NCBI RefSeq assembly: GCF_012952065.1
Contig: NZ_JABCJJ010000010.1
Location: forward strand, 62,001 to 126,000
Length of the DNA: 64,000 bases
Reading direction: 5' to 3'
Origin: Cellulomonas fimi
GTDB taxonomy: Bacteria > Actinomycetota > Actinomycetes > Actinomycetales > Cellulomonadaceae
Shown here: positions 14,025 through 31,654 of the stretch, in pieces
Numbering within the stretch: position 1 is the first letter of the stretch
Layout of the letters: each line of letters opens with the position of its first letter
Made by a program: the position numbers and the translations under genes
The notes under the pieces: generated by a model
Told to the model about the DNA's origin: nothing
Database searches by the model: none
What the model saw: only the letters and a program-made list of their open reading frames with translations

Positions 14025-16106
14025 TCATCCGTCCGCTGCGCGGATCACGAGCCCCTCAGCCTGAGCTGCCGCGGCCCCACGGGTGTCGGCATCTCGCTCG
14101 GCCAGCGTTGCTGTCGCGAGCTCCAGCGGGAGGGCCGCCGAGAACTTCAGGCCGTCGACGGCCTCCTGGGTGACCCGCGGAAGGACCCCATCGAGGAGCG
14201 CGTCCCGGATCTGACGAGCCCCCACGCCGCTGGGCAGCGTGATGACGAGGTTGTCCGCGGCGGCCTCGGATGCACCGAGCGCTCCGATGAGCGTCTCGTT
14301 CGCGCGCCACCCGGCCCACGTCCACCACTCGGAGCCGGTGGCCCGGTCGATGAGGACGGTGCCGTGATCGTCCACGACCCCCGCCAGCTCGTCTCGCAGT
14401 GCCGCGAGACGAGCTGACGCCCGACGGGAGATCGTCACGGACGGGTTGGCCCCCAGCAGGACGTCGCGTTGCGCGCGCACCAGGTCGAACGACTCCGCGA
14501 CGGGTTCGCTCGGCCACCGCACCTTGGCCCGCTGCGGCTGCTCGCTCACGAGGATCTCGTGCCGCTCCCAGTCGATGGACTCGACGAGCCAGGCGCGTCC
14601 CGCGAGAAGGATGTGCTTCTGCGCGTCAGGCCTGGTCCCCGTGACCGCCATGGGCGAGACGGTGCCGATCTCCCGCCGCCCGGCCACCACCCGCATCTCC
14701 CACGCGCTGGTGAACGAGGAGAGCAGGTCCATGAAGTAGCGCCGCCCGAACTCTCGCTCGGCCGCGGGGCCGATGAAGAGGAGGCCGCCGTCCTCGACGA
14801 GGAAGGACTCGCGTCGAAGGTGCTCGAGCACGGCGTCGCCGTCGGCCATGATCGCCAGTCCCCCGAACCACTCCGGCCAGGTCGACGTCCCCAGGCGGCC
14901 TTCCTGGAGGGCGAGCGCGAGCAGCTGCTGGGCCAGGATGTGCCGCGGTGCGGCGGGAGGCTCGACCGGTTCGACGAAGCCCTGCCGCCACAGGTGCAGC
15001 ACGCCGAGAGCCCGCAGCAGGTGCGGCGGTTCCGTGGCCAGGAACAGCATGCTGCGGCTCGCCCCGGGCCGGCGGCCGGTCCGCCCCAGCCGCTGGAGGA
15101 ACGACGCCACGCTCCGCGGCGCATCCAGCTGGATCACGCGATCGAGGTCCCCGATGTCGACGCCCAGCTCGAGCGTGGACGTCGCCACGATCACGCAGTC
15201 GCGGTCCTCGGCGAACGCCCGCTCGCTCTGGCGGCGTTCGTCGGCCGAGAGCGAGGAGTGCGACACGTAGGTGGTGACGCCCCGCTCCCGCAAGGCGTAG
15301 GCCAACTCCTCCGCGACGCGCCGCGCCTCGCAGAAGACCAGGCGCTTCTCGCCGTGGTGCAGCCGCGAGATCACCTCGGCGGCGTTCTCCACCGATCCGA
15401 CGTAGTCGACGGTGACGTCGATGCCTGTGGTCGACGACGTCGCCTCCGTCACCACCTCGCGCGGCCGAGATCCCGCGCCGCCACCGCCACCACCCTGGAG
15501 CCAGCGCAGCATCTCATCGGGGTTGCCCACCGTGGCCGAGAGCCCGATCCGTTGGAGCGGCCTGCCGGCGACGCGCTGGATCCGCTCGAGAACCGCGAGC
15601 AGGTGCCACCCGCGGTCGTCGCCCGCGAACGCGTGCAGCTCGTCGATGACGACGGCGCGGACGCCACCGAGAAGGGCCCGGTGGTCCACCCGGCGCGAGA
15701 CCAGCATCGCCTCCAGCGACTCGGGCGTGGTGAGCAGGATGTCGGGGCGGTCCGACAGGATCCGACGACGCTCACCCGCACCCACGTCACCGTGCCACAG
15801 CCCCACCGTGCGACCGAGCCAGGCGGCGTACGCCTCGAGGCGAGGGTGCAGGTTGTTGAGCAGGGCCCGCAGCGGTGTCACGTAGAGCACCGAGACCCCG
15901 TGCCAGTCCTCGGCCACCATGCGAGAAAGAGTCGGGAAGACCGCCGCCTCGGTCTTGCCGCCGGCGGTCGGCGCGATCAGCAGGGTGTCGCGGCCTTCGA
16001 GGATCGGCGCGACGGCGGCGCGTTGGAGCGGGCGGAGATCCTGCCAGCCGAGCGAGTTGACGACGTGGTACTCGAGCGCGGGATGCAGGACCGATCGACC
16101 CGTCAT
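14025..16106 (-). CDS. brxHI: BREX type 2 helicase BrxHI (Lhr-like DEAD/DEAH helicase)
   Basis: 693-residue SF2 helicase. Walker A is APTAGGKT (45-52), the DExH box is DELH (155-158), then GLSATVGNP, and in the second RecA lobe STLELGVDIGDLDRVIQLDAP and QRLGRTGRR. This core resembles Lhr but is less than half Lhr length, as expected of BrxHI. It is the last gene of the BREX operon; its ATG lies four bases after the brxD stop. Helicases of this class are part of type 2 BREX operons, but their precise task is not established. Assignment rests mainly on the motifs plus the neighbours. Confidence 0.88.
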   Translation of the reverse strand: MTGRSVLHPALEYHVVNSLGWQDLRPLQRAAVAPILEGRDTLLIAPTAGGKTEAAVFPTLSRMVAEDWHGVSVLYVTPLRALLNNLHPRLEAYAAWLGRTVGLWHGDVGAGERRRILSDRPDILLTTPESLEAMLVSRRVDHRALLGGVRAVVIDELHAFAGDDRGWHLLAVLERIQRVAGRPLQRIGLSATVGNPDEMLRWLQGGGGGGAGSRPREVVTEATSSTTGIDVTVDYVGSVENAAEVISRLHHGEKRLVFCEARRVAEELAYALRERGVTTYVSHSSLSADERRQSERAFAEDRDCVIVATSTLELGVDIGDLDRVIQLDAPRSVASFLQRLGRTGRRPGASRSMLFLATEPPHLLRALGVLHLWRQGFVEPVEPPAAPRHILAQQLLALALQEGRLGTSTWPEWFGGLAIMADGDAVLEHLRRESFLVEDGGLLFIGPAAEREFGRRYFMDLLSSFTSAWEMRVVAGRREIGTVSPMAVTGTRPDAQKHILLAGRAWLVESIDWERHEILVSEQPQRAKVRWPSEPVAESFDLVRAQRDVLLGANPSVTISRRASARLAALRDELAGVVDDHGTVLIDRATGSEWWTWAGWRANETLIGALGASEAAADNLVITLPSGVGARQIRDALLDGVLPRVTQEAVDGLKFSAALPLELATATLAERDADTRGAAAAQAEGLVIRAADG

Positions 16107-16110
16107 GCCA

Positions 16111-17454
16111 CTAGACGTCGAGCTCGATGTCGTCGACCCCGACCGGCGCGGCCGGCGCGCGAAGGTCGCCCCGGTGGCTCGCCTCGCGCTCGGTGTCGGT
16201 GAGCTCGGACGACGCGACCGTGAGCGAGTAGTCGCGCCGGGGGTCGAAGGCGTCGAACTGGTCGACGCGGTCCATCACGTCGATCAGCTTCTTCAGGAAC
16301 AGCCGCGGGGCGACGCCGACCTTGTCGCCGAGCCGGCCCGCGACCGTGACGGCGAAGTCCGCGACGTACGCGTCGTCGATCTGGGCCCGCACGCGCTCCG
16401 GGGCGTCGGCTCCCGTGACGTAGATGTCCCGCACCCGTGATCCGAGCTCCACGAGCGAGGCGAGCGAGAACCCGGGCAACCGGATCTGCGGGGCCCGCGG
16501 GTTGTCGAAGGCGGCGTCCACCGAGAAGTCGACCGCGAGCCGCTGGGCGAGCGGCGGAAGGCGCTGCATCCCCTGCTGGCCGTCGTAGAACGCCGGAGTC
16601 CCGGTGATCACGAGGTACAGGCCGGGGAAGCGGCCGGAGTCGATCTCGTCGACCAGCTGCCTCAGCGCGTTCAGCGACTTCTCGCGGACGTCGGAGCGCA
16701 CGCGCTGGAGGGTCTCGACCTCGTCGAGGACGACGACCATCCCGTGGTAGTCGGAGTCGCGGAGCACGGTGAGCAGGCCCTGGAGGAAGCCGAGCGCCCC
16801 GAAGTGGTCGAGCTCGCCACGGACGCCGGCGGACCGGCGCACGGACGCCGCCACGTGCGGCTGCCCGCCGAGCCAGCCGATGAGGCCCTCGGCCTGGTCG
16901 ACGTCGCCGCTCAGGACTGCGCGCCGGTAGCCACGCAGCGCGGTGGCGAAGGCGGGCGCCGAGCGGCTCACCGTGTCGAGCCGACGGTCGAGGAGCGCGG
17001 CGGCGCCACGTTGGACGGCGCTCTCGTCGCCGCGATCGAGCCCCGACGCGATCACGTCCTCCTCCAGGACGTGGAACCACCCGTCGACGATCTCGCGCAG
17101 GGCGCTGGGGGCGGCCTCCGAGGTCGCCAGGTTCTCCACGATCCGCCGGTACACCGTCTCGAGGCGGTGGAGCGGCGTCTCGGTCTCGGAGATCTGCACC
17201 TCGGCGGCGGCGAAGCCCCGCTTCTTGGCCCGCTCGACGAGCCACCGGGCGTAGAACGTCTTGCCGGCGCCGTACTCCCCCCGCACGGCCTTGAACCCCG
17301 ACCCGCCTGCCGCGGCGGCGTCCAGCTCGCCGTCGATGGCCGCCTCGAACCTGGCCAGGCCGACGGCCATGACGTCGAGCCCGTGCTGGGGGACCGTCCC
17401 CCGCCGCAGGGCATCGACGATGTCGCGGCGGCGGCGCGCGCTGACGTCAGCCAC
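16111..17454 (-). CDS. brxD: BREX type 2 ATP-binding protein BrxD
   Basis: 447-residue P-loop protein from the GTG at 17454, which overlaps the pglZ stop by 8 bases; a GTG at 17481 would add nine residues. The start region ADVSARRRRDIVDALRRGTVPQHGLD is typical of BrxD. Walker A GEYGAGKT is at 59-66 and Walker B VVVLDEVE places Asp244 and Glu245. Family role: an AAA-type ATPase found in type 2 BREX operons and probably acting with the BrxHI helicase encoded right after it. No catalytic domain other than the ATPase is visible, and the C-terminus is short and acidic (VGVDDIELDV). Confidence 0.88.
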   Translation of the reverse strand: MADVSARRRRDIVDALRRGTVPQHGLDVMAVGLARFEAAIDGELDAAAAGGSGFKAVRGEYGAGKTFYARWLVERAKKRGFAAAEVQISETETPLHRLETVYRRIVENLATSEAAPSALREIVDGWFHVLEEDVIASGLDRGDESAVQRGAAALLDRRLDTVSRSAPAFATALRGYRRAVLSGDVDQAEGLIGWLGGQPHVAASVRRSAGVRGELDHFGALGFLQGLLTVLRDSDYHGMVVVLDEVETLQRVRSDVREKSLNALRQLVDEIDSGRFPGLYLVITGTPAFYDGQQGMQRLPPLAQRLAVDFSVDAAFDNPRAPQIRLPGFSLASLVELGSRVRDIYVTGADAPERVRAQIDDAYVADFAVTVAGRLGDKVGVAPRLFLKKLIDVMDRVDQFDAFDPRRDYSLTVASSELTDTEREASHRGDLRAPAAPVGVDDIELDV

Positions 17455-20203
17455 GACCGGCACCCAGCTCGAACTGCTCACGGAGGAGCCGCTCGTCGAG
17501 CCGGACGGTCTCGCCGTCCGCGTCCATCGAGACGACCGCGTATCCCTCGACGTTCAGCAACCGCGTCAGCGCGGCGAGCGCCACCCCGAACGACCCGGCC
17601 GAGACTCCGAGGGCCGCCGCCACCGTGTCGCGGTGGGCGCGGCCGCCGCGGTCGAGCAGCACCGTCAGCGCGGAGTCCACCTGGTCGTGCTTGAGCGGGT
17701 GCCGCCCCGCCCGTCGCCGCTGCGACGCGTAGATCTCGCTCTCCGCGAGCCGGCCGATGAGGCCGTGACCGGTCCCGGTCGGCCCGGTGCCGGACTGCGC
17801 CTCCGGGTTTGGGACGGCGAAGTCGAGCACGCCCTGCGGCCCCTCGTCCGCCCGCGTCGGGGGCGGCGCCGTCGACGCACCCGCGTACGCCAGGTCGATC
17901 ACGCTGCCACCGGCCTGCGCGGTCCGGCGCGCTCGCCGCCCGCCGGTCGACTCCACGCGCTGGGCCTCGTTCCACCAGGCCGGCGCCTGCGGCACCGCCT
18001 CGCGCCAGCCGCGAGGCGCCGGCCCGCCGGAGCGGCTCAGCAGCAGGAACGGCACGGTGATCTCCGCGAGGCTGGCTCCGCCGTGGTAGCCCGAGCGGAG
18101 GCTCGCGTAGCGCAGGTCCTCGCGCCACGGCAGCACCACCTCTCCGGGCACCACGCGCCGTCCGCGCACCACGACCTCGCCCGCCGTGGGCGGTCCGCTG
18201 GACGTGGGCCGCCATCGGGCATCGGCGCCCGGCGTGGGCCGCGCCTCGCTCCCGCGCTCGACGACGTGGCCGTGATCGGAGGTCAGCACGACGGCGCGGC
18301 CCGCCAGCGCCGCTGCGTCCAGCAGCGCGTGCAGGTGCTGGACGTCGTCGACGCCCCACCGCGTCCCGCCCGGGTCCTGCTTGTCCAGGGCGTCGTCGAT
18401 CGTGTTGAGGACGACGGCGACCATGCGCAGCTCGGGGTCGTCGATGACGGACCGCACCGACGCCGGGAGGACCTCGCCGGCCGGGGCGCGCAGGTCGTCC
18501 TTGTGGAACAGGGGTGCGCCGAAGCGCGCCCGGACCGCCTGCTTCTCGGTGCTCTGGTTCCCCTCGCGCAGCGCACCGGTGAAGAAGGCCGTGCGCGAGT
18601 ACCTCGTGAGCGTCGGGAGGGCGGCGAGGACGGGGAGACGGCGTCCGCTCCCCTCGGGCACCAGCTCGCGCCAGCCTGCGACCCGGACCGCCTCGGTCGT
18701 GATCGCCTCGGCGAGCTCGACGGCCACCGGCGCGCTCATCCCGTCCAGCAGGATCACCAGCGGCCGGAGCGCGGACGCGACCGGCCACACCACGTCGCCC
18801 AGCACCGACTCGATCAGCGCGACACCGTCCGGCGACTCGTCCCGCGCGGTGGCATCGGCCAGCAGCGCGGCGGCGTCCCGGTCCTGGGTGCCGCGGGCGA
18901 GGTGGACGTGATCCAACACAGACCGGTAGGCCGTGCCCACGAGCTCGTCGGACGACCCGTTCCAGACGGCGGCGGCCGCGCGGTCGACCCAGGCCCCGTC
19001 GTCGGCGTACCGGCGCAGGGCAGCCCCCAGGTCCGCGGGCTGGTCGCGGTCGGGCTGCGCGGCGAGCCACCGCACGAGCCGGACGACCATGCGGGCGGCC
19101 ACCACGGCGGAGTCCCTCGCCCCGGCGCGCTCGTGCTGGACGATCTCGGTCAGGCGCCCTTCGATGCGCGGCAGGTCGGCCGTGAGGGCAGCCACGTTCG
19201 GCGCGGTGAGGGCTTCCGCGAGCGCCCGGAAGCGAGCGCGCAGGCCGGCGGGCAGCACCGACGACCACTCGGCGCCGGCGGACCAGCCGACGTCGCCGAG
19301 CAGCGCCTCCGCCTGGGCCAGCACGGACGGGACGGCGGTCGAGTCGGTGGCGTCCATGCGGACCAGGAGCGTGCGCGCCGCGCGCGCGAGCTCGCGGGCG
19401 GCGGTCGGCGAGACCGGCTTGTCGTCGATGCGGCTCTCGATCCGGCCGCGCGCGGGCCCCTGCTCCGGCCCGACGACGGCGCTGCTCGCCTCCGGCCACA
19501 GCACGTCCAGAGCCAGGCCGATCGCGACGACGGACACCGGCCCGCGTGCCGCGGCGGCCAGTGCCATGGCCGCGGCACGGCCGAACGCCTTGCCCGCCCA
19601 CGTCGTGAGCCCCGACCGGAGGGGGTCGGGCGCCTGCGTCCACGAGGCGCGGCCCGCCGGGACCTCGAGCGCGGCGAGCAGCGCCACGAGGTCGAGCTCG
19701 ACCGGGAGTGGTCGACGCAGGAGGACCCCGAGCAGGTTGCCCAACGCGTGGTCGGCGCCGACGACGCCGGACGAGACCTGCGGCCACCCCTCCGGCGGCT
19801 GGTGCTCGAGCAGGGCGACGGGCACCCACCTCCCGGCTGCCCGGAGCGCCGGGTCGAGGGCGCGCGCGCCGAACAGGCCCGGGATCGCGGACCACTCGTC
19901 GAGGAGCTCGACCCGGTGCCGCTCGGCGCGCACCAGCACGGCGTCGCCGATCTCCTGCTCGGTGCGGTCGCTCAGGAGGACCAGGAAGTCGTCGGGCTTG
20001 CGCTCCGAGATCGCGTCGAGCGCGGCCAGCTGGGAGACGGCCGGGCGCACCAGGACGCGGGCGGTGCCGACGGTGATCTCGGGCGGCCCCGTCCAGCGCG
20101 GCCGCGCCCGGAGGACGAGCACCTTGGCGCCGCCGTCGGCGACGAGCTTCTTGGCGCGCTCGGTGACCAGGGCGACCGACGCCTGGGGGACGCGGTCGGT
20201 CAC
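17447..20203 (-). CDS. pglZ: BREX type 2 phosphatase-fold protein PglZ
   Basis: 918 residues from the GTG at 20203, whose GTGA overlaps the pglY stop. The alkaline-phosphatase-superfamily core is visible as PLVILLDGMS with metal ligand Asp487, the PTLTRYSR motif near 530 where the family nucleophile lies, and TSDHGHV (Asp643, His644, His646). A winged-helix-like C-terminus (DTVAAALGVSAGSFGVALAALTRLL) ends the protein. PglZ is one of two genes present in all BREX types and is required for defence in the systems tested; its phosphatase or nuclease substrate is not known. It is followed by brxD with overlap, consistent with one transcript. Confidence 0.92.
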   Translation of the reverse strand: MTDRVPQASVALVTERAKKLVADGGAKVLVLRARPRWTGPPEITVGTARVLVRPAVSQLAALDAISERKPDDFLVLLSDRTEQEIGDAVLVRAERHRVELLDEWSAIPGLFGARALDPALRAAGRWVPVALLEHQPPEGWPQVSSGVVGADHALGNLLGVLLRRPLPVELDLVALLAALEVPAGRASWTQAPDPLRSGLTTWAGKAFGRAAAMALAAAARGPVSVVAIGLALDVLWPEASSAVVGPEQGPARGRIESRIDDKPVSPTAARELARAARTLLVRMDATDSTAVPSVLAQAEALLGDVGWSAGAEWSSVLPAGLRARFRALAEALTAPNVAALTADLPRIEGRLTEIVQHERAGARDSAVVAARMVVRLVRWLAAQPDRDQPADLGAALRRYADDGAWVDRAAAAVWNGSSDELVGTAYRSVLDHVHLARGTQDRDAAALLADATARDESPDGVALIESVLGDVVWPVASALRPLVILLDGMSAPVAVELAEAITTEAVRVAGWRELVPEGSGRRLPVLAALPTLTRYSRTAFFTGALREGNQSTEKQAVRARFGAPLFHKDDLRAPAGEVLPASVRSVIDDPELRMVAVVLNTIDDALDKQDPGGTRWGVDDVQHLHALLDAAALAGRAVVLTSDHGHVVERGSEARPTPGADARWRPTSSGPPTAGEVVVRGRRVVPGEVVLPWREDLRYASLRSGYHGGASLAEITVPFLLLSRSGGPAPRGWREAVPQAPAWWNEAQRVESTGGRRARRTAQAGGSVIDLAYAGASTAPPPTRADEGPQGVLDFAVPNPEAQSGTGPTGTGHGLIGRLAESEIYASQRRRAGRHPLKHDQVDSALTVLLDRGGRAHRDTVAAALGVSAGSFGVALAALTRLLNVEGYAVVSMDADGETVRLDERLLREQFELGAGRG

Positions 20204-23200
20204 TCGAACCACCACGTGACGCGCAGCCGCTTGCCCGGGTGCGCGCGGACGCTCTCGGCGATCCGCGCGGTGAGCTCGCCGAGCTGCGGGTTGTCGCGGT
20301 CGACGTCGAGCGTGATCTCGTCGACGGTGACCGGCGCAGCGACCGGCTCCACCGGCGGCGGGTTCACCGGCGCCGGGTTTACCGGCGGCACGTCCGACGA
20401 AAGCGGCGTCACGACCCCCGGCGTCCGGTCGAGCAGCGCCTCCCGGACAGCCTTCGACGCCGCCCGCAGCGCGGGCGCCAGCGGGGCGTGCAGCTCCTCC
20501 TGGGCCGCCACGGCGGCGAGGTCGGTGAGGATCGCGTCGCCCACGCCGTCCGGCAGCCGGCGGGCGGAACCGATGAGGTCCCAGTCCGTCCCGGCGAGCC
20601 CGGCGCGCACGTCCGCGGCCGAGCTCATCGACTTCGCCAGCGCCTGCGGCTCCTGGGGCACGTCGGCGCGGGCGAGCACCTGCAGCAGCACGGTGTCGTC
20701 GTTCTCGCGGCCGAGCGCGTCGAGCAGGCTCGCGCCGCGCCGTGCCGTCGCCAGGCGCCCCGTCGCCGTCGTGTCGAGCCGCAGCACCCGGGCGTGCCGC
20801 TCCAGCTCGTCCACCAGGCGCGTCGCGGGCTCGCGCAGGCGGCTCACGGCGGCCCGCACCTCGGCGGCCAACCGGGCCGCGCCGGCGGCGCTCCGACGCG
20901 GCTGCGCAGCGGCTCCGAACAACGCCGCCGCGGCGCGGGTGGCCTGCGCCCACTCGGTCTGGTCGGGCAGGCGCGCCGGGCGCAGCACCATGTCGCCGGT
21001 GACCGCACCCACGCTCGGCGCGGTGACCCGCGTCCCGCCGCGCACCCACTCGCGGTCCTCGAGCGCCGACCACACGAGGACCAGCAGGTCCTCGACGTCG
21101 TTCACCATGCCGTACGGCTGGAGCCGGGCGCGGAGGTCGCCGATCCTGACCTCGCCGTCCACTCCCGTGTCGACCGCCCACCGCGTGAAGTCGCTGAGCC
21201 AGCCGAACGACTCGGCCGAGAGCGCGTAGACGGACTCGCGCGCCTCCCCGACGCGCAGCGGGACCGCGACCCTGCGGAGCACCGCGGCCTTGGCCCGCTC
21301 GATCTGGTCGAGCCGCCCGCCGGCCTCGATCGCCCGACGAGCGAGCTCGAGCACCGTGGTGAGGTCGCCGCGCTTCACCTCGGTGTCGACCGAGTCGAAC
21401 GTCGGGTGGTCGGGGTGCTGCGCGTCGAGCCCCTGCCGCAGCGCCGACTCGAGCGCGGCGCGCAGCGACGCCACGACGGACGGCTGGATGGAGACGGACG
21501 GCAGCAGCGTCGTGAAGACCTCGCTCGCGTGGATCTGGGCGTCGACGTTCTCAGCGACGGGCGCGACGACGCCGTACGCCTGCCGCAGCACGTCCAGCAC
21601 CTTGGCGCGCAGGCTGCGCCGGTTGTTGTCCAACGCGATCCGCGCCGGCTCGCGGTCACCGGGGTTGAGCTGCCGGGCGCTCTGCTCGAACCGCTCCCCG
21701 GTCAGGAGGTAGTCGAGCTGGTAGAGCTTGCCGATCTCCGCCATGCGCGCCGGGGTGAGGAAGTACGGCAGCCACACGAGCGTGGCGCTCTCCCACCCGC
21801 TCTCGCGCAGGCGGGCGAGGCGGTTGAGGTCCTCCTGCGGCGTGTGGTCGCCGGCGTCGAACGGGAAGTCGATGACGACCTTCCACCGGCCCGTCGGAGC
21901 CTTGAGCACCTCGTCGGGCAGCTCCGACGCGTCGCGCACGTTGCCGAACACGACGTCGACCTCGCGCCGCGAGCCGCGCCACACCACGGACAGCGTGCGC
22001 TCGGCCAGCAGCCCGCCCTGGGCGGTGATCCCCAGCTCGTCGGTGAGCATCTCCCGGATGAGCTTGCGCCGGTTCGCCTCGGTGTCCTCGTGCTGGACGG
22101 ACTCGAGCAGCAGGTCGTAGTTCACCCCGGTGAGGCTCAGGCTGACCACCGGGTCGGCGCCCTCCCCGATGTGTACCTCGATGAACTCGGCCGCCCACTC
22201 CTTGACCAGGGCCATGACCCGCTGGGCCTGCTGGCCGGGGACGAACGTCTGGATGGTGCCGTAGTTGAGCGCGGCGAGCTTGGCGTAGGTGAGGTTCCGC
22301 AGCGACGGCGCCCCGGGCGCGAGGAACGCGACCAGCAGCGTCGTCGCGAGGCGGTCCTCGGTGCGGAACGGGTGGTCCCGCGGGAGGGTGCGGGCGCTGT
22401 CCTCGGTCAGCCCGTGCTTCGCGAGCAGGTACGGGCGCATCCGGTGCTCGTAGAACACCCGGGCGTTGGCGAAGTGCTGCTTCATCTCGGCGGTGAGCGG
22501 GTCACGCCCGCCACGCACGACGACGTCGAACAGGTCGCCGACCGGGATCACGTCGGTGACCCGCAGCTCGTCGCGACCGGCGCTCAACAGCTCGCCCATG
22601 ATCCGCAGCGCGGTGCGTTCGCGCTGCATGAGCGCCGAGAGCGCGATCATCGCGTCGACGAGGGCGGGCGAGAACGGGTAGGTGAGCTCGAACTCCGTGC
22701 CGCCGGAGCGGTTCTCGTCGGTGAGCAGGTAGCCCCAGGCGGCCGAGTCGGACCGCACGCGCGCGACGGCGTCCGCCAGCGCCTGCTTGGCCTCGGGGCT
22801 CACGGGGGTGAGCAGGCGTCGCTGGACGATCTGCGGCAGGTCCGCGGCGGCGAGCTCGATGCGCTCGAACCGCTCCTCCCACCAGGTGAAGCTCTGCCCG
22901 ATCGCCGCCTGCTCGGCCCCGACGGCGTCCCCGCCGAGGAAGTCCTTGAGGTCGCGCTGGCGGGCGACGAACGAGACGAGCGGCACCGGGAGGCTGCTCA
23001 TGCCGGTCTCGACGAGCCGCGCGACCTTGGAGGTCTCGTTCTGGATGAAGTGCGTGTCGGAGAGGTGCTGCGCGAGCCAGAGCACCAGCTCGTCGAGGAA
23101 CAGGACGACGCCGTCGTACCCCAGGTCCGCGGCGTGCTGCGTCATGGCCCGCAGGCCGGTCTCGATGTCCAGCCACTCGCCGGACCGGCGGTAGCTCGCG

Positions 23201-23868
23201 AAGTACTTGGTGACGAGCGCGTTGACCAGCTTGGCCCGGCGCGCGTCGCCGACCGGGGCCTGCGCCGCAGCCTCGTAGGTCGCGGCGCCCCACGCCTCGT
23301 TGCGAGCGCCCCACCCGGACGAGACGCCGGAGCTCTCGTTGAGCCCGGCGAAGAACCGCTCGTCGCCCACCTCGGCGCGCAGGCCGGCGGCGTCCGCGAG
23401 CAGCCCGCCGGACTGGTGGAGCACCGGCGGCTCGGCGTCCGGGTGCAACCGGGTGATCGCGCGCTGGTAGCCCTCGAAGAGCGCGCTCTCGAAGCTCTCC
23501 GCGCCGAGCAGGTGGTAGTCGACGGCGAGCAGCCGGGTGTTGAGGACCGCCTCGCGCTGCGCGACGACGTGCTGGAGCCCCGGCATCGCCCGGGCCGTGG
23601 TGTTGCCTGTGAGCAGCAGGTGGAGGACGGCCATGAAGTGGCTCTTGCCCGACCCGAACGAGCCGTGCACGAACGCGCCCTTGCTGGTCCCCGCCTCGAC
23701 CGTGCGCTGCACGAGCCCGAGCGCGTCGTCGATCGCTGTGGCGAGCGCGTCGGTGACGACGTAGTCGCCCAGGGTCCGCTCGGCGGCGGCGACGCCGGGC
23801 TCGAGCTGGAGCACGAAGTCCGAGGAGTCGACCTTCTCGGGGATGGTGAAGACGTCGCGCAGCAGCAT
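20200..23868 (-). CDS. pglY: BREX type 2 large ATPase PglY (BrxC-like)
   Basis: 1222 residues from the ATG at 23868, preceded by GGAAGG inside the end of pglX; the gap to the pglX stop is two bases. The N-terminus MLLRDVFTIPEKVDSSDFVLQL is characteristic of PglY. Walker A GSFGSGKSHF runs from residue 69 and Walker B VVLFLDE ends at Asp259-Glu260. The remainder is helical with no further named domain; a Pro/Val-rich linker precedes a short C-terminal domain. PglY is the type 2 equivalent of BrxC, a large AAA+ ATPase of the BREX core complex. Its position between pglX and pglZ is the standard type 2 order. Confidence 0.92.
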   Translation of the reverse strand: MLLRDVFTIPEKVDSSDFVLQLEPGVAAAERTLGDYVVTDALATAIDDALGLVQRTVEAGTSKGAFVHGSFGSGKSHFMAVLHLLLTGNTTARAMPGLQHVVAQREAVLNTRLLAVDYHLLGAESFESALFEGYQRAITRLHPDAEPPVLHQSGGLLADAAGLRAEVGDERFFAGLNESSGVSSGWGARNEAWGAATYEAAAQAPVGDARRAKLVNALVTKYFASYRRSGEWLDIETGLRAMTQHAADLGYDGVVLFLDELVLWLAQHLSDTHFIQNETSKVARLVETGMSSLPVPLVSFVARQRDLKDFLGGDAVGAEQAAIGQSFTWWEERFERIELAAADLPQIVQRRLLTPVSPEAKQALADAVARVRSDSAAWGYLLTDENRSGGTEFELTYPFSPALVDAMIALSALMQRERTALRIMGELLSAGRDELRVTDVIPVGDLFDVVVRGGRDPLTAEMKQHFANARVFYEHRMRPYLLAKHGLTEDSARTLPRDHPFRTEDRLATTLLVAFLAPGAPSLRNLTYAKLAALNYGTIQTFVPGQQAQRVMALVKEWAAEFIEVHIGEGADPVVSLSLTGVNYDLLLESVQHEDTEANRRKLIREMLTDELGITAQGGLLAERTLSVVWRGSRREVDVVFGNVRDASELPDEVLKAPTGRWKVVIDFPFDAGDHTPQEDLNRLARLRESGWESATLVWLPYFLTPARMAEIGKLYQLDYLLTGERFEQSARQLNPGDREPARIALDNNRRSLRAKVLDVLRQAYGVVAPVAENVDAQIHASEVFTTLLPSVSIQPSVVASLRAALESALRQGLDAQHPDHPTFDSVDTEVKRGDLTTVLELARRAIEAGGRLDQIERAKAAVLRRVAVPLRVGEARESVYALSAESFGWLSDFTRWAVDTGVDGEVRIGDLRARLQPYGMVNDVEDLLVLVWSALEDREWVRGGTRVTAPSVGAVTGDMVLRPARLPDQTEWAQATRAAAALFGAAAQPRRSAAGAARLAAEVRAAVSRLREPATRLVDELERHARVLRLDTTATGRLATARRGASLLDALGRENDDTVLLQVLARADVPQEPQALAKSMSSAADVRAGLAGTDWDLIGSARRLPDGVGDAILTDLAAVAAQEELHAPLAPALRAASKAVREALLDRTPGVVTPLSSDVPPVNPAPVNPPPVEPVAAPVTVDEITLDVDRDNPQLGELTARIAESVRAHPGKRLRVTWWFE

Positions 23869-23870
23869 GG

Positions 23871-26800
23871 TCAGGCCTTCCGTGGCGTGCGTCCGCGGGT
23901 GGCCGATGCAGGCCGCCACGCGTCGAGGTCGGTGCGGGTGAGCCCGAGGGCCTGCAGCTCGTGGTCGAGCATCCCGGTGATCGCCGCGGCGGGGCTGCCG
24001 CCGCGGGCCGGGTCGGGGTCGGCGTGCCACTGGTGCAGCCACGGCTCCAGCTCGGCGAGCCCCGCGAGCAGCGGCGTGAGGGCGTCGGTCTCGGCACCCT
24101 GCTCCTTCGCCTGCCCGACGGCGCGGGCCAACGCGAGCGCCTGGTCCGCGTGGTTCCAGCCGGCCCACCCGAGCACGGGCGAGGTGTCACCGCTGCGCCC
24201 GACGCCCGGGTAGGAGATGAACCGCTCCTTGGGCACGTCGAGCTTCCCGCGGGCGCGCCAGGCGGCGGTCGAGCGGAAGTCGGCCTGCGCGTACTTCGGC
24301 GGGACCGGGATGGTGACGCGCTCGCCGGCGTCCTCGCGGCGCTGCAGGTCCCACACCTGCTGCCACTCGCGGAACTTCGTCATGCCGCTGTCCTTGAGCC
24401 GGTACGCCGCGAGGTACGGCACCGCCTCGTCCTTGACCAGGGCCGTGAGGGTCTGGACGGCGTCGTACTGCGCCGAGCCTGTGAGCCGCGTCAGGACCGC
24501 CCGCAGCACGTCGTCGTCGCGTGTCTTGTCAGCCAGCTGCGCGACGGACAGGGTCGAGGCGCCCTGCGGGTCGCGCCACAGGTCGGCCGACTCCAGCCGG
24601 TCGAGCGCGAGGGTGCGCAACGCGTCGGTCAGCTGCGACTCCCACGACGCGGTCGCCCACCGTCGCTTGTACTCCGGACGTTCCAGCAACCGGATGTGCG
24701 GGTTCGACTCGATCGCCGCGAGCCGACGCTTGACGACGTCGCGGTAGTCGGCGGGCCACTGCGCCGGAAAGTCGGTGATAGGAGTTGAGCCATGTCGCTC
24801 GAACCAGACTGTCTCGTCCGTACCGGCCTCCATGGCGCGGGCTAGCGCAATCTCGAAGGCTCGCTCACCGAAGCGGAGTGTGTCGAGGGCGCCGGGATAA
24901 GTGAGGTCGTCGTCGACCAACCCGTAGAGGCGGTAGGCGTTCCAGTCCAACTCTTCCTGTTCGTAGATCATGCGCTCACGTGTATGCCGCCAAGCAGTCC
25001 GAGCATCCCCGAGTGTGTCGAGTCTGTCTCCAATTCCGTGACGTTCGACGAAACTTCCGGGAGCGCGGCCCGCGGCACGCACTGCGAGCTCCTCCAGCCT
25101 CCGTCCCCTGGCAATCGGTAGTGCGGACGGAAGTGGGAACTGCTGCAACTTGGTGCCTGTGAACTCATACGTATCAAACGCCGGATCGCCAGTGACGCGC
25201 GCGCCGGAGGTATCTGTTGAGTCTCCCCGATTTTGAGACACCTGCTTGAGCCAAAAGCAGGCGGTGCTGGTGTTGAGAATGGAAAGCAAACCGAGATGGT
25301 CATCTTCTGTAGCGCCGACCTGCAACTTGATAGCCGGAGCGGTCTGCTTGAATACCTTTCCGCCCCGGTCAAGCACGAAATGGTTGTGCGTCGCTACAAA
25401 CGGGAACGCAATCGACATCGGTCGCCGATATCTGGCCGGAAAAAACATACTATGGTCGAACCAACGCAGCCCCCGCTGCTCAGGCGTGTGGCCGAAGTCG
25501 ACTCGCTGCTTGAGAGCCGTCCGCATTGGCCACAGCTCGCGTAGAAACTCCGAGCTCGGCTCCCTTGGCTCCCCGCCGTCCGCGTAGGGAAAGAGAGTGG
25601 CTGTCTCGCTTGAAAGCGCGAAGTCACGAACCTCGTCGCCCAAGACGACAGGAACTAGCTCGTGAACTCCGCGGCGCTGGCCGAAGCGGCGGTCACGATA
25701 GAAGGCCTCATCTAACCCGGTGTGAGTCGTCCTACCGATCTCGACGTCTAGATCACCGAGAATCCTCGATGTACGAGATATCTCCGCCAGGACTTCGGCC
25801 GCACTGCCGCCCGAAAGCGACCACGGGTGGTTCCTGAGGAGATCTCGGTCGAGCCGTGTCACCGTGACGAATTTCCCGTCGTGAGCCTCGTCATCGATGT
25901 GACCGGTGATTTCAGACCACACGAGTCCAAGCCCCGGATCGGTTGGCTGGCCCGGCTCACCCCGAACTCCCAGAACCGCCTTGATTGAGTTGCCGCTTGC
26001 GCGCCTGCGCCGTCCGACGAGGATGACGGTCGGTGTTCCGTGGCCAGGAATATAGGCGCCGGACGTGTCGATCACTGCGGTGAGGTCGACCGGATTGCCG
26101 AGGTCGTCCCCGGAAAGGAGGCGCTCGATCACCTTGGTGCCAAACTCGCGCTTCATGAACGAGTTCGACGTGATCTGACCGACGTGTCCGGCGCCGCCGT
26201 CGGCTCCCTCGCGCTTGGCGAGCCGGAAGAACAGCTCCATGAAAGGGACAGAGAGCGCGTACTGCCGGTGACAGGTCGCGTACGCCTTCCGATACGCCTC
26301 GGAGAGCGCCGGGTCCTTGACGGTGATGTACGGCGGGTTGCCGACCACCACGTGGTACCGGCCCGGCGTGAGGATCCCGGCGTACTCCGAGAGGTCCTCG
26401 GCGGCGTACGCGAACGGTTCGTCGTCGTCGTCGGCCAGGAGGCCGAGCTCCTGCTGGACGCCCTGCTCACCGAGCAGCGAGTCACCCACGGCTAGGTAGT
26501 AGTCGAACGCCGGAGCCGCCGTCAGCGTCGCGTCCCCGCTGGCCTTGAGCGCAGCGACCGTCAACCGGAACCGGGCGATCGCCACGGCGAACGGGTTGAG
26601 GTCCACCCCGTGGATCGAGTCGAGCGCCCTCTGCACGCGCTCCCGCGAGCTCAGGTTCGGTGCGTGCGCCCGCCACGCCTCGTCGAGCCGCGCGAACGCG
26701 CCCAGCAGGAAGTGCCCCGACCCACACGTGGGGTCGATGAGCTTGAGCCCTCCCAGCCCGAACTCCTCGATCGCCGGGGTCAGCGTGCGGTCGAGGATGA

Positions 26801-27455
26801 ACTCCTCCACGAACACCGGCGTCTGCAAGAGCGCGTACGTCTTCTTCGCGTGCTCGGAGAGGTCCTGGTAGAGGTCGCCGAGGAACCGGGTGCCCAGGTC
26901 GGGGTCGGTGAAGTCGTGGACCAGGGCGCCGTCGTCGTGCCGGCGACGCCAGAACGCCACGAGCGCGTCGGCCGCGGAGTCGCTGATCAGCGCCCGCCAC
27001 ACCGGGTTGTGCCCGGGGTCCACCAGGCCCCGGCCCGCGGGCAGGTCGGCCAGCGCGCGGAACGCGAGGTGCAGCCAGTCGCGGGAGTTGTCCGTCGGGT
27101 GCTTCTCGTAGTGCGCCTGCTGGTTCTCGACCGCCTGCGCGGTGCGCTCACCCGGACCGGCGATCCACACGGGCGAGCCGCCCGCCGTCGGATGCCCGTC
27201 GAGCAGGTGGTTGTCCTCGCAGAACCGCACGAACGTCGACGCGAGGATCCACGCCACCGCGGCCTGCGCCACCTCACCGTCCCGCCACACCGACCACGTC
27301 AGCGCCGTCCGGCCGCGCGCGGTGGCCCGCGCGTGCTCGGACCGCAGCGCCCGCGACCACTCCACCTCGGGGTCCTCGGACTGCGCGCGCAGGTCGCCCT
27401 CGAGGGCGGCGAGCTGACGCTTGAGATCGGCGAGCAGGGCGGACGAGACGATCAC
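23871..27455 (-). CDS. pglX: BREX type 2 adenine-specific DNA methyltransferase PglX
   Basis: 1194 residues from the GTG at 27455, whose GTGA overlaps the pglW stop. The SAM-binding motif I is LIDPTCGSGHFLLGAF (DPTCGSG 241-247) and the catalytic motif IV is VVGNPPYITVK with Asn373-Pro-Pro-Tyr376, giving an N6-adenine methyltransferase. PglX marks host DNA and takes part in phage recognition. Bases about 24780-26340 (residues about 373-890, after NPPY, where target recognition is expected) are clearly poorer in GC, 55-65% against about 72% outside, suggesting an exchanged recognition region. No G-tract of the kind that switches S. coelicolor pglX is seen; a run of six A/T at 25440-25445 is the longest homopolymer noticed. 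Confidence 0.93.
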   Translation of the reverse strand: MIVSSALLADLKRQLAALEGDLRAQSEDPEVEWSRALRSEHARATARGRTALTWSVWRDGEVAQAAVAWILASTFVRFCEDNHLLDGHPTAGGSPVWIAGPGERTAQAVENQQAHYEKHPTDNSRDWLHLAFRALADLPAGRGLVDPGHNPVWRALISDSAADALVAFWRRRHDDGALVHDFTDPDLGTRFLGDLYQDLSEHAKKTYALLQTPVFVEEFILDRTLTPAIEEFGLGGLKLIDPTCGSGHFLLGAFARLDEAWRAHAPNLSSRERVQRALDSIHGVDLNPFAVAIARFRLTVAALKASGDATLTAAPAFDYYLAVGDSLLGEQGVQQELGLLADDDDEPFAYAAEDLSEYAGILTPGRYHVVVGNPPYITVKDPALSEAYRKAYATCHRQYALSVPFMELFFRLAKREGADGGAGHVGQITSNSFMKREFGTKVIERLLSGDDLGNPVDLTAVIDTSGAYIPGHGTPTVILVGRRRRASGNSIKAVLGVRGEPGQPTDPGLGLVWSEITGHIDDEAHDGKFVTVTRLDRDLLRNHPWSLSGGSAAEVLAEISRTSRILGDLDVEIGRTTHTGLDEAFYRDRRFGQRRGVHELVPVVLGDEVRDFALSSETATLFPYADGGEPREPSSEFLRELWPMRTALKQRVDFGHTPEQRGLRWFDHSMFFPARYRRPMSIAFPFVATHNHFVLDRGGKVFKQTAPAIKLQVGATEDDHLGLLSILNTSTACFWLKQVSQNRGDSTDTSGARVTGDPAFDTYEFTGTKLQQFPLPSALPIARGRRLEELAVRAAGRAPGSFVERHGIGDRLDTLGDARTAWRHTRERMIYEQEELDWNAYRLYGLVDDDLTYPGALDTLRFGERAFEIALARAMEAGTDETVWFERHGSTPITDFPAQWPADYRDVVKRRLAAIESNPHIRLLERPEYKRRWATASWESQLTDALRTLALDRLESADLWRDPQGASTLSVAQLADKTRDDDVLRAVLTRLTGSAQYDAVQTLTALVKDEAVPYLAAYRLKDSGMTKFREWQQVWDLQRREDAGERVTIPVPPKYAQADFRSTAAWRARGKLDVPKERFISYPGVGRSGDTSPVLGWAGWNHADQALALARAVGQAKEQGAETDALTPLLAGLAELEPWLHQWHADPDPARGGSPAAAITGMLDHELQALGLTRTDLDAWRPASATRGRTPRKA
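24780..26340 (-). other. Low-GC segment inside pglX (probable recombined target-recognition region)
   Basis: Sixty-base lines counted by hand give 55-58% GC between 25321 and 25500 and 55% at 25741-25800 and 25861-25920, rising to 60-65% towards the edges, against 72% at 26341-26400 and 26881-26940. The right edge falls within a few codons of the NPPY motif. The reading frame stays open throughout, so the gene is intact. Confidence 0.7.
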
Positions 27456-30400
27456 GCGGGGACTCCAGGGGCGGGACGAAGTGCGGACAGGTCCTCGGGC
27501 AGGTCGATCCAGCGGTCCGCGCCGAGGGGCACGGGCCGGCTGTCGAGCATCGGGAACGGCTGGCGACCGTGCCGCGGCACGAGCAGCCAGCGGGCCGCCG
27601 GCCGGGGCTGCGACTGGTCGAGCAGGTCGGAGACCAGGGCGGTCATGCCGTAGCGGGTCAGCGGCGCGGCGTTGAGCAGGAGCAGCGGTCGGGGCGTGGC
27701 CACGAGCCGCTTCCACGGCTCGGCCATCGCGTCCGTGACGAGGCCGACGAGGTTGTCCCAGTCGCCCCCCGACCCGGGCTCGGCGTCGGTCCGGAGCACG
27801 AGCTGCCAGTCGACGCCGTCGCGGCCCGCGAGCGCGCGCACCGCCGTCAGCAGCTCGGCGGCGACGTCGACCGGCTGGACGCCGTAGAGGTGGGCCAGCG
27901 TCGACGTCGCGCGCTCGTAGCTGCGCGGCGGGACGCACAGGGTCAGGGCCGAGCTCCGGCGCAGCGAGGACCGCAGCAGGCTGTCCGCGACGTCGGGCGC
28001 CTCGGCCGGGACGTGCGTGCGCGAGGTCGTGGACAGGCGCGACGAGCCGTGCGACGTGCGCTCGTAGTGGTCACCCTCCCAGCGCATGCCGGGGACCGCC
28101 GCCGTGACGACCTGGTCCAGCGCGGGCCTGGGCGGGAGCGCGGGCAGCGCCGGGAAGCGGTGGCCCACGCGCTTGCGCACGCCCGCCTCGGTGAGCACCG
28201 TCACCGCCGCACCCCGCAGCGCGACCGCGGCCGCCTCGGTGAGGTCCAGGTCCGGGCGGTAGAGCTCGTGGAAGCTCGAGAGCTGCACCGACCCCGCGCT
28301 CGCGGCGGCGAGGCGCAGCACCCGGTCGTCGGACAGCTCGGCGCGCAGGAGCGGCTGGCTGCGCAGCGCGGCTCGGGCGACAGACGCAGGGACGACGGCG
28401 CGCTCTGCCGTCAGTGCCGCCGCCGTCGCCGCCAGGGTCGCCGCGTCGTCGAGGAGCGCCTCCGCGGCGGCCACGTCGCCGCCCGGCGCGGTCGCGACGA
28501 CCACGGCGCCGCCCGGGACCCGCCGGAAGGCCAGACCCGGCTCCTTCGACTGCCGGTCGGACTCCACCACCGCCCGCACCAGACCGGCGGCCCTGCGGAG
28601 CCGGACCGACCCCTCCGCCGTCGACCCGTGCCGCAGCAGCACCGCCCCGGCGAGCTCGGGCAGCGCCGCGACGCCTTCCTCCGCGGCGAGGGCGGCGTCG
28701 ACCTCCGCGCGCACCTCGCGCACCACGCTCGACCGCTGCCACCGGCCGGCGGCCTTCTCGAGCGCGTCCGTCACGTCGGCGCGGGTCCGGCCCGTGGCCG
28801 CGGCGACCTCGGCCGCGCTGGGCCACAGGTTCGACCCCAGGACCGCCGCGTCGCCGTCGTCGGTCATCCCCAGCAGGGCGCGGAGCGCGTCGACCTCCGC
28901 GCGGTCGGCGGACGTGCTCCTCGGCAGGAGCCGGGCGAGGAACGTCTCGACGCTGCGGTCGGCCCCGACGGGCTCGGCGTGGTCCGTCGTCGTCGCCACG
29001 GCGAGCAGCCGGGACCGCCACCGACGGATGCGGCGCTGGATCTCCTTGCGGTGCTGCTCGCCCATGCCCGCGATCGCGTTGATCTGCATCGGCGAGGTGC
29101 GCAGCAGGTCACCGACGGTCTGGGCGGGGACGCGGCTCAGGGCGGACAGGGCGCGTGCCGAGAGACCCGACTCCGTCAGCGCCGTGCCCAGGGTGGCCGC
29201 CTCGGCGGCGGCGTCCCGGGCGGCGTCGTCCAGCTCGTCCGAGGGGGAGTCGATCGCCGCGAAGAGCCGGTGCCAGGCCTGCGCCATCGCCGCGACGTCG
29301 GCGAACCGGTCCGCGACGTCGGGGGCGAGCGCCTGGGCGAAGAACCCCGAGAGCGGCGCCGCGACGGAGGCCTCGAACATCTCCGGGGTGATGACGACGC
29401 GATCCGTCATCGACGCGGGCGCGAGCTCGCCGTCGACCCACCACGGTAGGTCGGTGGCGGCCATCTCGAACAGCGTGGCGGCGACGGCGTAGAGCTCGGC
29501 CGCCCGGTCGTAGCGACGGCGGGCGCGTCCCCTGGACGACCGGGAGACGGCGATGTACGGGTCCAGGTAGCCGCGCGTCCCCGAGCCGAGGTTCTCCAGC
29601 GGTTCGCGCGCGAGGGAGAAGTCGAAGAGCACCAGGCGCGGCCTGCGGGTGCCGGGGTCGGCCTGGATGCCGAGGTTGGCCGGCTTGATGTCGCGGTGGA
29701 AGAACCCCCGCGAGTCGAGGTACGCGACGGCTTCCATCAGGTCGGCGCCGAACCGCTCGAGCTCCTGGAGCGTGGCGCGTCCGCGGTCCTTGATCCGGGT
29801 GGCGAGCGTCTCCTTGCCCGCGTCGGAGAGCAGCAGCGCCGTGCGGCCGTCGACGTCGAGGGGCGGTGCGAGCAACCGCACGAGCCGGGGGTGCTCGAGC
29901 TGGGCGAGGACGGCCGCCTCCTCCGCCAGGCGGCGGGCGGCGGAGTCGTCCCGGGCGATCTTGAGGATCACCCCTTCGCGGACCGGCTCGGTGTCCTCGA
30001 CCAGGAGCGCGACGCCGGTCGAGCCCTGGCCCCGCTCCTCGCGCACGATGAAGCGGTCGGCGATGGTGTCGCCGCGGCGGGCCTCGAGCGGGTCCTGAGC
30101 GCGCGGCCGCTCGTCGACCGGGGCGTCCTGGTCCGGGGACGTGAGCGCGTCCTCGACGTCGTCGAGGCCGGCGAGGAACTCCTCCACGCTCGCGATGCGG
30201 TCCGCCTCGACCCGGGTGGTGGCGCGGCGGACGAGGTCGGCGACGACGTCGTCGAGCGCGGGATCGGCGAGCTGAGGGTCGAGGGCGCCGTCGGCGTCGA
30301 GCCGCTGCTGGAGCTCGGCGAGGGTCGCGGCGGGCGGCTCACCGGTGAGCACGAGGTAGCTCAGCGCGCCGAGGCCGTAGACGTCGAGCGGGATGGGCGG

Positions 30401-31654
30401 GAGGTCGTCGGCGCCGCGGTGGGTCTCCGGCGCGAGGTAGACCCAGTCACGTTGAGCGATCAGGCCACGGACGTCGGCCGTGCCGAACGACGTCGCCGAC
30501 TGCGGGGCGCCGCCTCCGGCTGCGCTCGATGCCGCCGGGTTGCGACGACCGCTCTGCCAGTCGCGGACCACGAGCTCGGGCGGCTTCGCCGCCGTGTTCA
30601 CGTAGACCTGGCGCGGGGTCAGCGCGCGGTGGACCAGCCGGCGCTGGTGCGCGTAGCGCAGGATGTCCGCGAGCCGGCGGACGAGGTCGAGCCGGTCGCC
30701 CAGGCCGAGCGTGGCGCCCGCGTCCGCGAGGTAGGCGTCGAGCGGGACCTCGGAGTCCGAGTGGTCGTAGATGAGCGCGGGGCCGAGACCCGACTCGACG
30801 AGCTCCTTCGGGCACGCGATCCCGCTGTGCTGGATGCCCTGGGTGAACAGGAACTCACGCCTGGCCGCCCGCTCGATCTCGGCGCGGGCCTCCGCCGAGG
30901 CGCCCGGCTTGAGGTCGAAGAGCCTGATCCGGCGCTTGACCGCCGGCGCGGCGGGGTGGGCCGCGAGCAGGTCCTGCCAGGCGGGGCCGTCGTCGAGCGG
31001 GTCCGCCTTGTCCAGCGAGTAGTCGCCGATGTAGCGGTTCTTGGGCGTCGGACGGAAGCCCGCGTGGTGGTCGAGCAGGGTGCGGATCTTCGTCGCGCGC
31101 GGACCGTCGATGACGCGCTGGGCGTTGGTGGGTGGGGTGTCGAGCACGTCGCTGAGGGATCGCGTCAGCCCCGTGACGCCGTACCCGTCGAGCGCGACGA
31201 CGCTCGCCTGGGCTGTCTGGTCCAGCTCCACGGTAGAACCCTTGCCGTGCAGCACGACGAGCGGCTCCACGAACGGGACGGTCCGCCGGACCTGCTCGTT
31301 GGGGGCCATGCGCTCGAGCAGGCTGCGCAGGCGCTTGGCCTTGCCGTCCGTGGCGAAGAGGGGGTTCCGCTCGTTGCGCACGTGCCCGTTGGGCTGGGTG
31401 TGGCGCCAGTTCTGCTGGTCGCCCGCGACCCGGCCGTGCCACCCCTTGAGCTCGACGACGAAGAAGCCGACCTTCGACATGAGCAGCAGGTCGACCTCGG
31501 CCGTGCGGCCGTCGAGGTCCACGAAGGTGAGGTTCGTCCACGCGTGCGTGACGGCGTCGTCGGGCAGCAGGGCGCGGATGGCGTCGAGCGCAAGCGCCTC
31601 GTCGGTGGAAGCGGGCTCGCCGAGCTTCTTCCACTGGTGGGACGTCGACTTCAC
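27452..31654 (-). CDS. pglW: BREX type 2 serine/threonine kinase PglW
   Basis: 1400 residues, GTG start with GGAG nine bases upstream. A NERD domain occupies about residues 20-130 (AEVDLLLMSKVGFFVVELKGW at 52-72). A first kinase-like domain at about 205-500 has a degraded catalytic loop, HRALTPRQV (342-350), and DWQSG (365-369), so it is probably a pseudokinase. A second at about 530-795 looks active: glycine loop GQGSTG (542-547), Lys565 in ILKIA, HRDIKPAN (653-660), although DFG is DFS (678-680). The rest is helical and includes a helix-hairpin-helix-like AIAGMGEQHRKEI segment. PglW is the kinase that defines type 2 BREX together with pglX, pglY and pglZ. It is the first gene of the operon. 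Confidence 0.93.
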   Translation of the reverse strand: MKSTSHQWKKLGEPASTDEALALDAIRALLPDDAVTHAWTNLTFVDLDGRTAEVDLLLMSKVGFFVVELKGWHGRVAGDQQNWRHTQPNGHVRNERNPLFATDGKAKRLRSLLERMAPNEQVRRTVPFVEPLVVLHGKGSTVELDQTAQASVVALDGYGVTGLTRSLSDVLDTPPTNAQRVIDGPRATKIRTLLDHHAGFRPTPKNRYIGDYSLDKADPLDDGPAWQDLLAAHPAAPAVKRRIRLFDLKPGASAEARAEIERAARREFLFTQGIQHSGIACPKELVESGLGPALIYDHSDSEVPLDAYLADAGATLGLGDRLDLVRRLADILRYAHQRRLVHRALTPRQVYVNTAAKPPELVVRDWQSGRRNPAASSAAGGGAPQSATSFGTADVRGLIAQRDWVYLAPETHRGADDLPPIPLDVYGLGALSYLVLTGEPPAATLAELQQRLDADGALDPQLADPALDDVVADLVRRATTRVEADRIASVEEFLAGLDDVEDALTSPDQDAPVDERPRAQDPLEARRGDTIADRFIVREERGQGSTGVALLVEDTEPVREGVILKIARDDSAARRLAEEAAVLAQLEHPRLVRLLAPPLDVDGRTALLLSDAGKETLATRIKDRGRATLQELERFGADLMEAVAYLDSRGFFHRDIKPANLGIQADPGTRRPRLVLFDFSLAREPLENLGSGTRGYLDPYIAVSRSSRGRARRRYDRAAELYAVAATLFEMAATDLPWWVDGELAPASMTDRVVITPEMFEASVAAPLSGFFAQALAPDVADRFADVAAMAQAWHRLFAAIDSPSDELDDAARDAAAEAATLGTALTESGLSARALSALSRVPAQTVGDLLRTSPMQINAIAGMGEQHRKEIQRRIRRWRSRLLAVATTTDHAEPVGADRSVETFLARLLPRSTSADRAEVDALRALLGMTDDGDAAVLGSNLWPSAAEVAAATGRTRADVTDALEKAAGRWQRSSVVREVRAEVDAALAAEEGVAALPELAGAVLLRHGSTAEGSVRLRRAAGLVRAVVESDRQSKEPGLAFRRVPGGAVVVATAPGGDVAAAEALLDDAATLAATAAALTAERAVVPASVARAALRSQPLLRAELSDDRVLRLAAASAGSVQLSSFHELYRPDLDLTEAAAVALRGAAVTVLTEAGVRKRVGHRFPALPALPPRPALDQVVTAAVPGMRWEGDHYERTSHGSSRLSTTSRTHVPAEAPDVADSLLRSSLRRSSALTLCVPPRSYERATSTLAHLYGVQPVDVAAELLTAVRALAGRDGVDWQLVLRTDAEPGSGGDWDNLVGLVTDAMAEPWKRLVATPRPLLLLNAAPLTRYGMTALVSDLLDQSQPRPAARWLLVPRHGRQPFPMLDSRPVPLGADRWIDLPEDLSALRPAPGVPA

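What the first reader, a model, noticed from the sequence alone, without database searches (positions are those of the whole stretch)
24780..26340. Low-GC mosaic block inside pglX that starts at the NPPY motif
Hand counts give 55-58% GC in the centre against about 72% on both sides. The upstream edge is within a few codons of the catalytic NPPY and the frame is unbroken. This is what is expected if only the target-recognition part was exchanged by recombination with a lower-GC donor, changing the BREX recognition sequence while keeping the catalytic part.
Basis: partly seen in the sequence, partly recalled or inferred. Interest (0 to 1): 0.75.

Follow-up and report, generated by a model that had tools for sequence, protein, structure and literature searches.

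The report
Exchanged target-recognition cassette of BREX PglX
The middle of this phage-defence methyltransferase gene, the part that reads the DNA target, is a cassette that related bacteria exchange while the rest of the gene stays the same, and it has lower-GC codons in nearly every relative examined, so the low GC is a standing mark of a fast-swapping part and not the trace of one recent import in this strain.

Summary
The GC dip inside pglX (23871-27455, minus strand, 1194 aa) is real and is a codon-level effect. Third-position GC is 0.94 before, 0.67 inside and 0.95 after residues 468-896 (26054-24768); four-fold sites give 0.94/0.63/0.94. The main step lies about 95 codons after NPPY, with a milder onset about 15 codons after it. 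pglY and pglW show no such dip. So the dip does not show a recent import from a low-GC donor. The other half fails: the block's phylogeny is strongly incongruent with the flanks. Streptomyces species with flanks 94-97% identical differ to 30-48% in the block. Two tandem pglX pairs differ mainly there. In E. coli BREX-1, only 4 of 351 pglX-bearing genomes match at least 80% of the HS allele. Profile alignment to E. coli BrxX places the DNA-reading domain inside the block. Best reading: a recombining target-recognition cassette, AT-shifted as a class. Exchange is well supported; the cause of the AT shift is inferred.

The parts
23871..27455 (-). pglX, BREX type 2 adenine methyltransferase, 1194 aa, GTG start
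   Evidence: PADLOC PglX PDLC02529 E=0 over residues 1-1192; Pfam Eco57I 280-447 and DUF7008 829-1190
26715..26735 (-). SAM-binding motif I DPTCGSG, residues 241-247
   Evidence: sequence; columns nearly all invariant in 21 relatives
26328..26339 (-). catalytic motif IV NPPY, residues 373-376
   Evidence: sequence; invariant; aligned with NPPY 508-511 of E. coli BrxX
24768..26054 (-). low-GC3 exchange block, residues 468-896 (GC3 0.67 against 0.94-0.95)
   Evidence: maximum-likelihood change points, confirmed
25197..25829 (-). target recognition domain by homology, about residues 543-753 (end interpolated)
   Evidence: profile alignment with E. coli BrxX, 98.8% probability, window 544 = HS 653 and 698 = HS 783; TRD 651-837 in the DNA-bound structure (PMC11842806)
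24768..25196 (-). rest of block: spacer-helix region and start of DUF7008, residues 754-896
   Evidence: helices 781-843 in the model; by analogy with E. coli BrxX after residue 837
23874..24767 (-). conserved C-terminal flank, residues 897-1194, GC3 0.95
27452..31654 (-). pglW, kinase of BREX type 2; control gene without a dip
   Evidence: PADLOC PglW; Pfam Pkinase, NERD; GC3
20200..23868 (-). pglY (BrxC-like ATPase); control gene without a dip
   Evidence: PADLOC BrxC-PglY; GC3 95-100 in every bin
17447..20203 (-). pglZ (start not determined)
   Evidence: Pfam PglZ, marginal, 25.3 bits against cut-off 25
16111..17481 (-). brxD
   Evidence: Pfam BrxC_BrxD E=6e-139
14025..16106 (-). brxHI helicase
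   Evidence: PADLOC BrxHI E=1e-288; Pfam DEAD/Helicase_C

Best explanation
Residues about 470-895 of PglX are an exchangeable specificity cassette: the last part of the methyltransferase fold, the whole target recognition domain and the start of the spacer/C-terminal helices. Homologous recombination in the conserved flanks replaces the cassette with a non-homologous allele and keeps the catalytic front and the C-terminal part, which presumably meets the other BREX proteins. This happens again and again across the family, in two sub-blocks that can move apart, and is expected to change the methylated and excluded site. The low-GC codons are a standing property of the cassette as a class. Shown: the dip, its presence in all 83 relatives, block replacement between close alleles, incongruent trees, overlap with the target-recognition domain. 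Inferred: that specificity changes; that the AT shift arises because alleles without mutual homology escape the homologous recombination and selection that keep GC3 high in the flanks, and so keep the AT-richer composition of accessory genes.
For: GC3 step of 0.94/0.67/0.95 with flat GC2 and four-fold 0.94/0.63/0.94. 83/83 BREX-2 relatives lower in the block; in 79 of 81 full-length genes the best 3-segment model is a central dip, median edges at residues 390 and 842. Identity of residues 500-690 correlates only 0.18-0.36 with the main flanking segments, against 0.61-0.68 among N-terminus, motif I region and C-terminus. AU tests: flank trees cost 3.6-4.0 log-likelihood units per site on residues 500-690 against 0.4 between N and C flanks; this gene's sister is L052 in flanks, L046 in residues 500-690, L007 in 750-880. 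Nine Streptomyces species: nucleotide identity about 0.9 in most flank bins, 0.35-0.45 at 561-680; GC3 follows identity along the gene, rho 0.88. Tandem pglX pairs in G228 and G049. E. coli BREX-1: 351 genomes match, 4 cover at least 80% of the HS allele; flanks 0.57-0.59 GC3, block 0.24-0.36, rho 0.81. Structure and profile match to E. coli and Salmonella BrxX/PglX.
Against: No relative closer than about 64% identity was found, so no exchange is dated or polarised for this strain itself. No donor allele was found. The block edges do not fall on structural domain borders. Flank trees also reject each other by AU test, although by far less. The model of the recognition domain is poor (pLDDT below 50 at 548-585 and 642-716), and a fold of the block alone matched nothing convincing. 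The cause of the AT shift is not tested directly.
Confidence: 0.83

Rival explanations
1. Recent single import: this strain's recognition domain came in one recent recombination from a distinctly lower-GC donor, and the dip is its unameliorated trace.
For: Steep GC3 edges with no gap in the frame; one of the deeper dips in absolute terms (-0.28, 9th of 83); block sister differs from flank sister.
Against: Every relative has the dip and the window's block is ordinary given its flanks (z -0.69). Closest relatives of the block are other PglX proteins, mostly of high-GC Actinomycetota, best 52% identical. Searches of plasmids and viral contigs gave no low-GC source; whole-length matches were to PglX relatives, the rest only to the shared end of the methyltransferase fold.
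Confidence: 0.08
2. In-place codon effect: the block has low GC3 because of selection on its codons (slow translation at a domain junction, mRNA structure, relaxed translational accuracy) or because of its amino acids, without exchange.
For: Near-universal position of the dip; present in BREX-1 and BREX-2.
Against: Four-fold sites show the full dip. Poorly conserved N-terminal residues keep GC3 near 0.9. Very low-GC hosts, an L. plantarum plasmid and a Paraburkholderia plasmid show no dip. GC3 follows allele homology along the gene, rho 0.81-0.88. Block phylogeny is incongruent.
Confidence: 0.07
3. The exchange is real, but the AT shift comes from a pool of AT-rich donors (accessory genes, phages, plasmids) that is continually re-imported, with no role for recombination within the host.
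For: Accessory genes are AT-richer than core genes in many species (PMC5303225). HsdS recognition domains in relatives of this genome are AT-shifted against their HsdM in 9 of 10 cases.
Against: Block GC3 follows the host (E. coli about 0.25, Acinetobacter about 0.24, BREX-2 set mean 0.66), so no single pool; low-GC hosts show no rise. No reservoir outside PglX was found.
Confidence: 0.3

Closest known systems
Target recognition domain exchange in Type I HsdS and Type III Mod genes (domain movement; PMC3983042, PMC3077401)
   Same: A specificity domain is replaced by a non-homologous allele through conserved flanks while the catalytic part is kept; alleles fall into unrelated groups.
   Different: Here the domain lies inside the BREX methyltransferase PglX, between catalytic and C-terminal parts of one chain; no repeat-driven movement within the gene was looked for or seen.
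E. coli BrxX and Salmonella PglX, BREX type 1 (PMC11842806, PMC11341690; PDB 9EWZ, 8C45)
   Same: Same order: helical N-terminus, methyltransferase with NPPY, TRD, spacer helices, C-terminal part; the E. coli alleles show the same exchange and GC3 dip.
   Different: The window gene is BREX type 2 (PglW-X-Y-Z, BrxD, BrxHI), about 12-18% identical in structural alignments; the structure of its TRD is not known.
Streptomyces Pgl / BREX type 2 PglX (PMC4365076)
   Same: Same family and gene set; Streptomyces alleles give the clearest block exchange here.
   Different: The literature stresses on/off phase variation of pglX; here the change is of the recognition block.

Membership tests
BREX type 2 PglX | Full-length match to the PglX profile | tested here: met
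   PDLC02529 E=0, residues 1-1192 of 1194
BREX type 2 PglX | Neighbouring pglW, pglY, pglZ, brxD, brxHI | tested here: met
   (pglZ only marginally by Pfam)
BREX type 2 PglX | Gamma-class N6-adenine methyltransferase motifs I and NPPY | tested here: met
   residues 241-247 and 373-376
BREX type 2 PglX | Methylates host DNA at a short non-palindromic motif | not testable with these tools
   no methylome
TRD cassette exchange (as in HsdS / Type III Mod) | Near-identical flanks with unrelated central segment in related alleles | tested here: met
   Streptomyces, E. coli and tandem pairs; for the window's own species not available
TRD cassette exchange (as in HsdS / Type III Mod) | Phylogeny of the segment incongruent with the flanks | tested here: met
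   AU tests
TRD cassette exchange (as in HsdS / Type III Mod) | Exchanged segment contains the DNA-recognition domain | tested here: met
   profile alignment to E. coli BrxX of known structure; own fold of the block inconclusive
TRD cassette exchange (as in HsdS / Type III Mod) | Different cassettes give different methylation motifs | not testable with these tools
   needs methylomes of paired strains
Recent low-GC import in this strain | Block composition deviates from the same block in relatives | tested here: not met
   83/83 have the dip; z -0.69

The most novel reading that the evidence does not exclude
The AT shift of PglX recognition cassettes arises in place: where alleles share no homology, homologous recombination (GC-biased conversion, or the purging it allows) cannot act, so the cassette drifts toward the mutational AT bias inside a gene whose flanks stay GC-rich. 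Specificity cassettes would then be natural within-gene experiments on what sets bacterial GC content.
Probability: 0.33. Interest if true: 0.68.

Novelty: new member of a known kind. Interest (0 to 1): 0.45.

Why it matters
It shows that BREX, like Type I and III restriction, changes its recognition part by swapping a cassette, with breakpoints that leave the rest of the protein alone. That is a guide to where specificity could be grafted. It also warns that a GC dip in a specificity domain is not by itself a sign of recent transfer, since nearly all relatives have it. The parallel of GC3 with allele homology along one gene bears on the open question of why bacterial core genes are GC-richer than accessory ones.

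Tried and rejected
Amino-acid composition as cause: rejected by GC2 and four-fold sites. Weak conservation as cause: rejected, since variable N-terminal residues keep GC3 near 0.9 and the conserved stretch 661-720 is still below the flanks. A whole-locus effect: rejected, pglW and pglY are flat. phmmer of PglX against PDB sequences: no match. AlphaFold models: methyltransferase part good, recognition domain poor; block folded alone matched nothing convincing. Plasmid and viral-contig searches with residues 460-705: whole-length matches only in PglX relatives, otherwise the shared end of the methyltransferase fold. No same-species or same-genus pglX was found, so a strain-level exchange could not be shown. 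A first run on the G049 tandem pair used wrong ORFs and a first run on HsdS loci missed the reversed ones; both were redone. Literature searches for a report of family-wide low GC in pglX or hsdS recognition domains found none, which is not proof of absence.

Full report
What is there. The finding lies in pglX of a complete BREX type 2 operon on the minus strand: pglW 27452-31654, pglX 23871-27455, pglY 20200-23868, pglZ 17447 to about 20203, brxD 16111-17481, brxHI 14025-16106. PglX is 1194 aa, with motif I at residue 241 and NPPY at 373.

The observation. Total GC dips as described, but the signal is in the third codon position. A three-segment likelihood model puts the edges at residues 468 (437-469) and 896 (892-901), with GC3 0.94, 0.67 and 0.95. 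Four-fold sites give 0.936, 0.627 and 0.936, so amino-acid composition is not the cause. NPPY is about 95 codons upstream of the main step; a weaker rise in A/T-ending codons starts at residue 388. pglY and pglW have no such dip.

I collected PglX relatives from related genomes, a genome collection and plasmids and aligned 83 of them, the window gene included. All 83 have lower GC3 in the residues aligned to 481-880: mean flank 0.85, mean block 0.66. They come from many Actinomycetota, one planctomycete and several proteobacterial plasmids. In 79 of 81 full-length genes the best three-segment model is a central dip, with median edges at window residues 390 and 842. Regressed on flank GC3, the window's block lies 0.7 SD from expectation. 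The dip is therefore family-wide and cannot be read as a recent import in this strain.

Exchange is nevertheless real. Pairwise identity in residues 500-690 correlates 0.18-0.36 with the main flanking segments, while N-terminus, motif I region and C-terminus correlate 0.61-0.68 with each other. In 40 sequences, forcing a flank tree on residues 500-690 costs 3.6-4.0 log-likelihood units per site, against 0.4 between N- and C-terminal flanks; the sister of the window gene differs between flanks, first sub-block and second sub-block. Many pairs of Streptomyces species have flanks 94-97% identical but 30-48% in residues 500-690. In nine of them nucleotide identity is about 0.9 over most of residues 1-300, falls to 0.35-0.45 at 561-680, partly recovers near 720, and is 0.86 or more from 900; GC3 follows the same curve (rho 0.88). 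Two genomes of the window's family carry two pglX genes in tandem; the copies are mostly 85% or more identical in the flanks and fall to about 35-60% in much of the block.

BREX type 1. With the E. coli HS allele, 351 of 5426 complete E. coli genomes match and only 4 cover at least 80% of the gene. Of 40 records sampled along the ranking, 36 match as two pieces, both ends without the middle. In eight alleles the flanks have GC3 0.57-0.59 and the middle 0.24-0.36. Acinetobacter, L. brevis, Planktothrix, Paracoccus and Haematobacter alleles dip too; Fusobacterium, Tenacibaculum, L. plantarum and Paraburkholderia do not. So the block follows its host but is AT-shifted, unless the host is already very AT-rich, with exceptions.

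What the block is. Foldseek ranks E. coli and Salmonella BrxX/PglX first for the model. A profile alignment (98.8%) equates window 544 with E. coli 653 and 698 with 783. The E. coli target recognition domain is 651-837 (PMC11842806), hence about 543-753 here, with the end interpolated. The block thus holds the end of the methyltransferase fold, the whole recognition domain and the spacer region. The E. coli exchange zone, about 521-955, corresponds closely. The recognition domain itself is modelled poorly.

How it most likely works. Recombination in conserved flanks swaps a specificity cassette (well supported). The recognition motif changes with it (inferred from the structure and engineering papers PMC11341690 and PMC11842806). 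The AT shift is a property of cassettes as a class. I think it most likely that alleles without homology escape the processes that keep GC3 high in the flanks and keep the AT-richer composition of accessory genes (PMC5303225); HsdS domains in relatives show the same shift against HsdM in 9 of 10 cases. This last step is not tested.

Standing. Exchange of recognition domains is known for Type I and III systems (PMC3983042), and divergence of pglX between E. coli HS and Salmonella in this region has been noted (PMC9009780). The scale of exchange in BREX and the family-wide GC3 signature are what this work adds, as far as the searched papers show.

Noticed in passing
L053 and L058 (G228:C65:189666-196977); L004 and L025 (G049:C9:7-6823): Two complete or nearly complete pglX genes in tandem, about 90-100 bases apart, with similar flanks and different recognition blocks: a possible spare specificity store. 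Two of ten pglX-bearing genomes in the family search.
   Followed up: partly
L038:7746-9786: A 2-kb insertion with 25-base terminal inverted repeats and a DDE transposase ORF interrupts Pseudonocardia oceani pglX at residue about 897, the right edge of the block.
   Followed up: partly
L066:3004-3551: pglX of a Thiodictyon plasmid is split by about 550 bases near residue 800, with a small ORF between the two halves.
   Followed up: no
L136-L165: In relatives of this genome, Type I HsdS recognition domains have lower GC3 than the adjacent HsdM in 9 of 10 measurable cases (means 0.70 and 0.83).
   Followed up: partly
L134: Paraburkholderia sabiae plasmid pglX (BREX-1) is a high-GC exception without a dip (0.83 flanks, 0.81 block).
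   Followed up: no
window 25438-25447: The only homopolymer of six or more in pglX is TTTTTT at about residue 671, inside the block: a possible slippage site.
   Followed up: no
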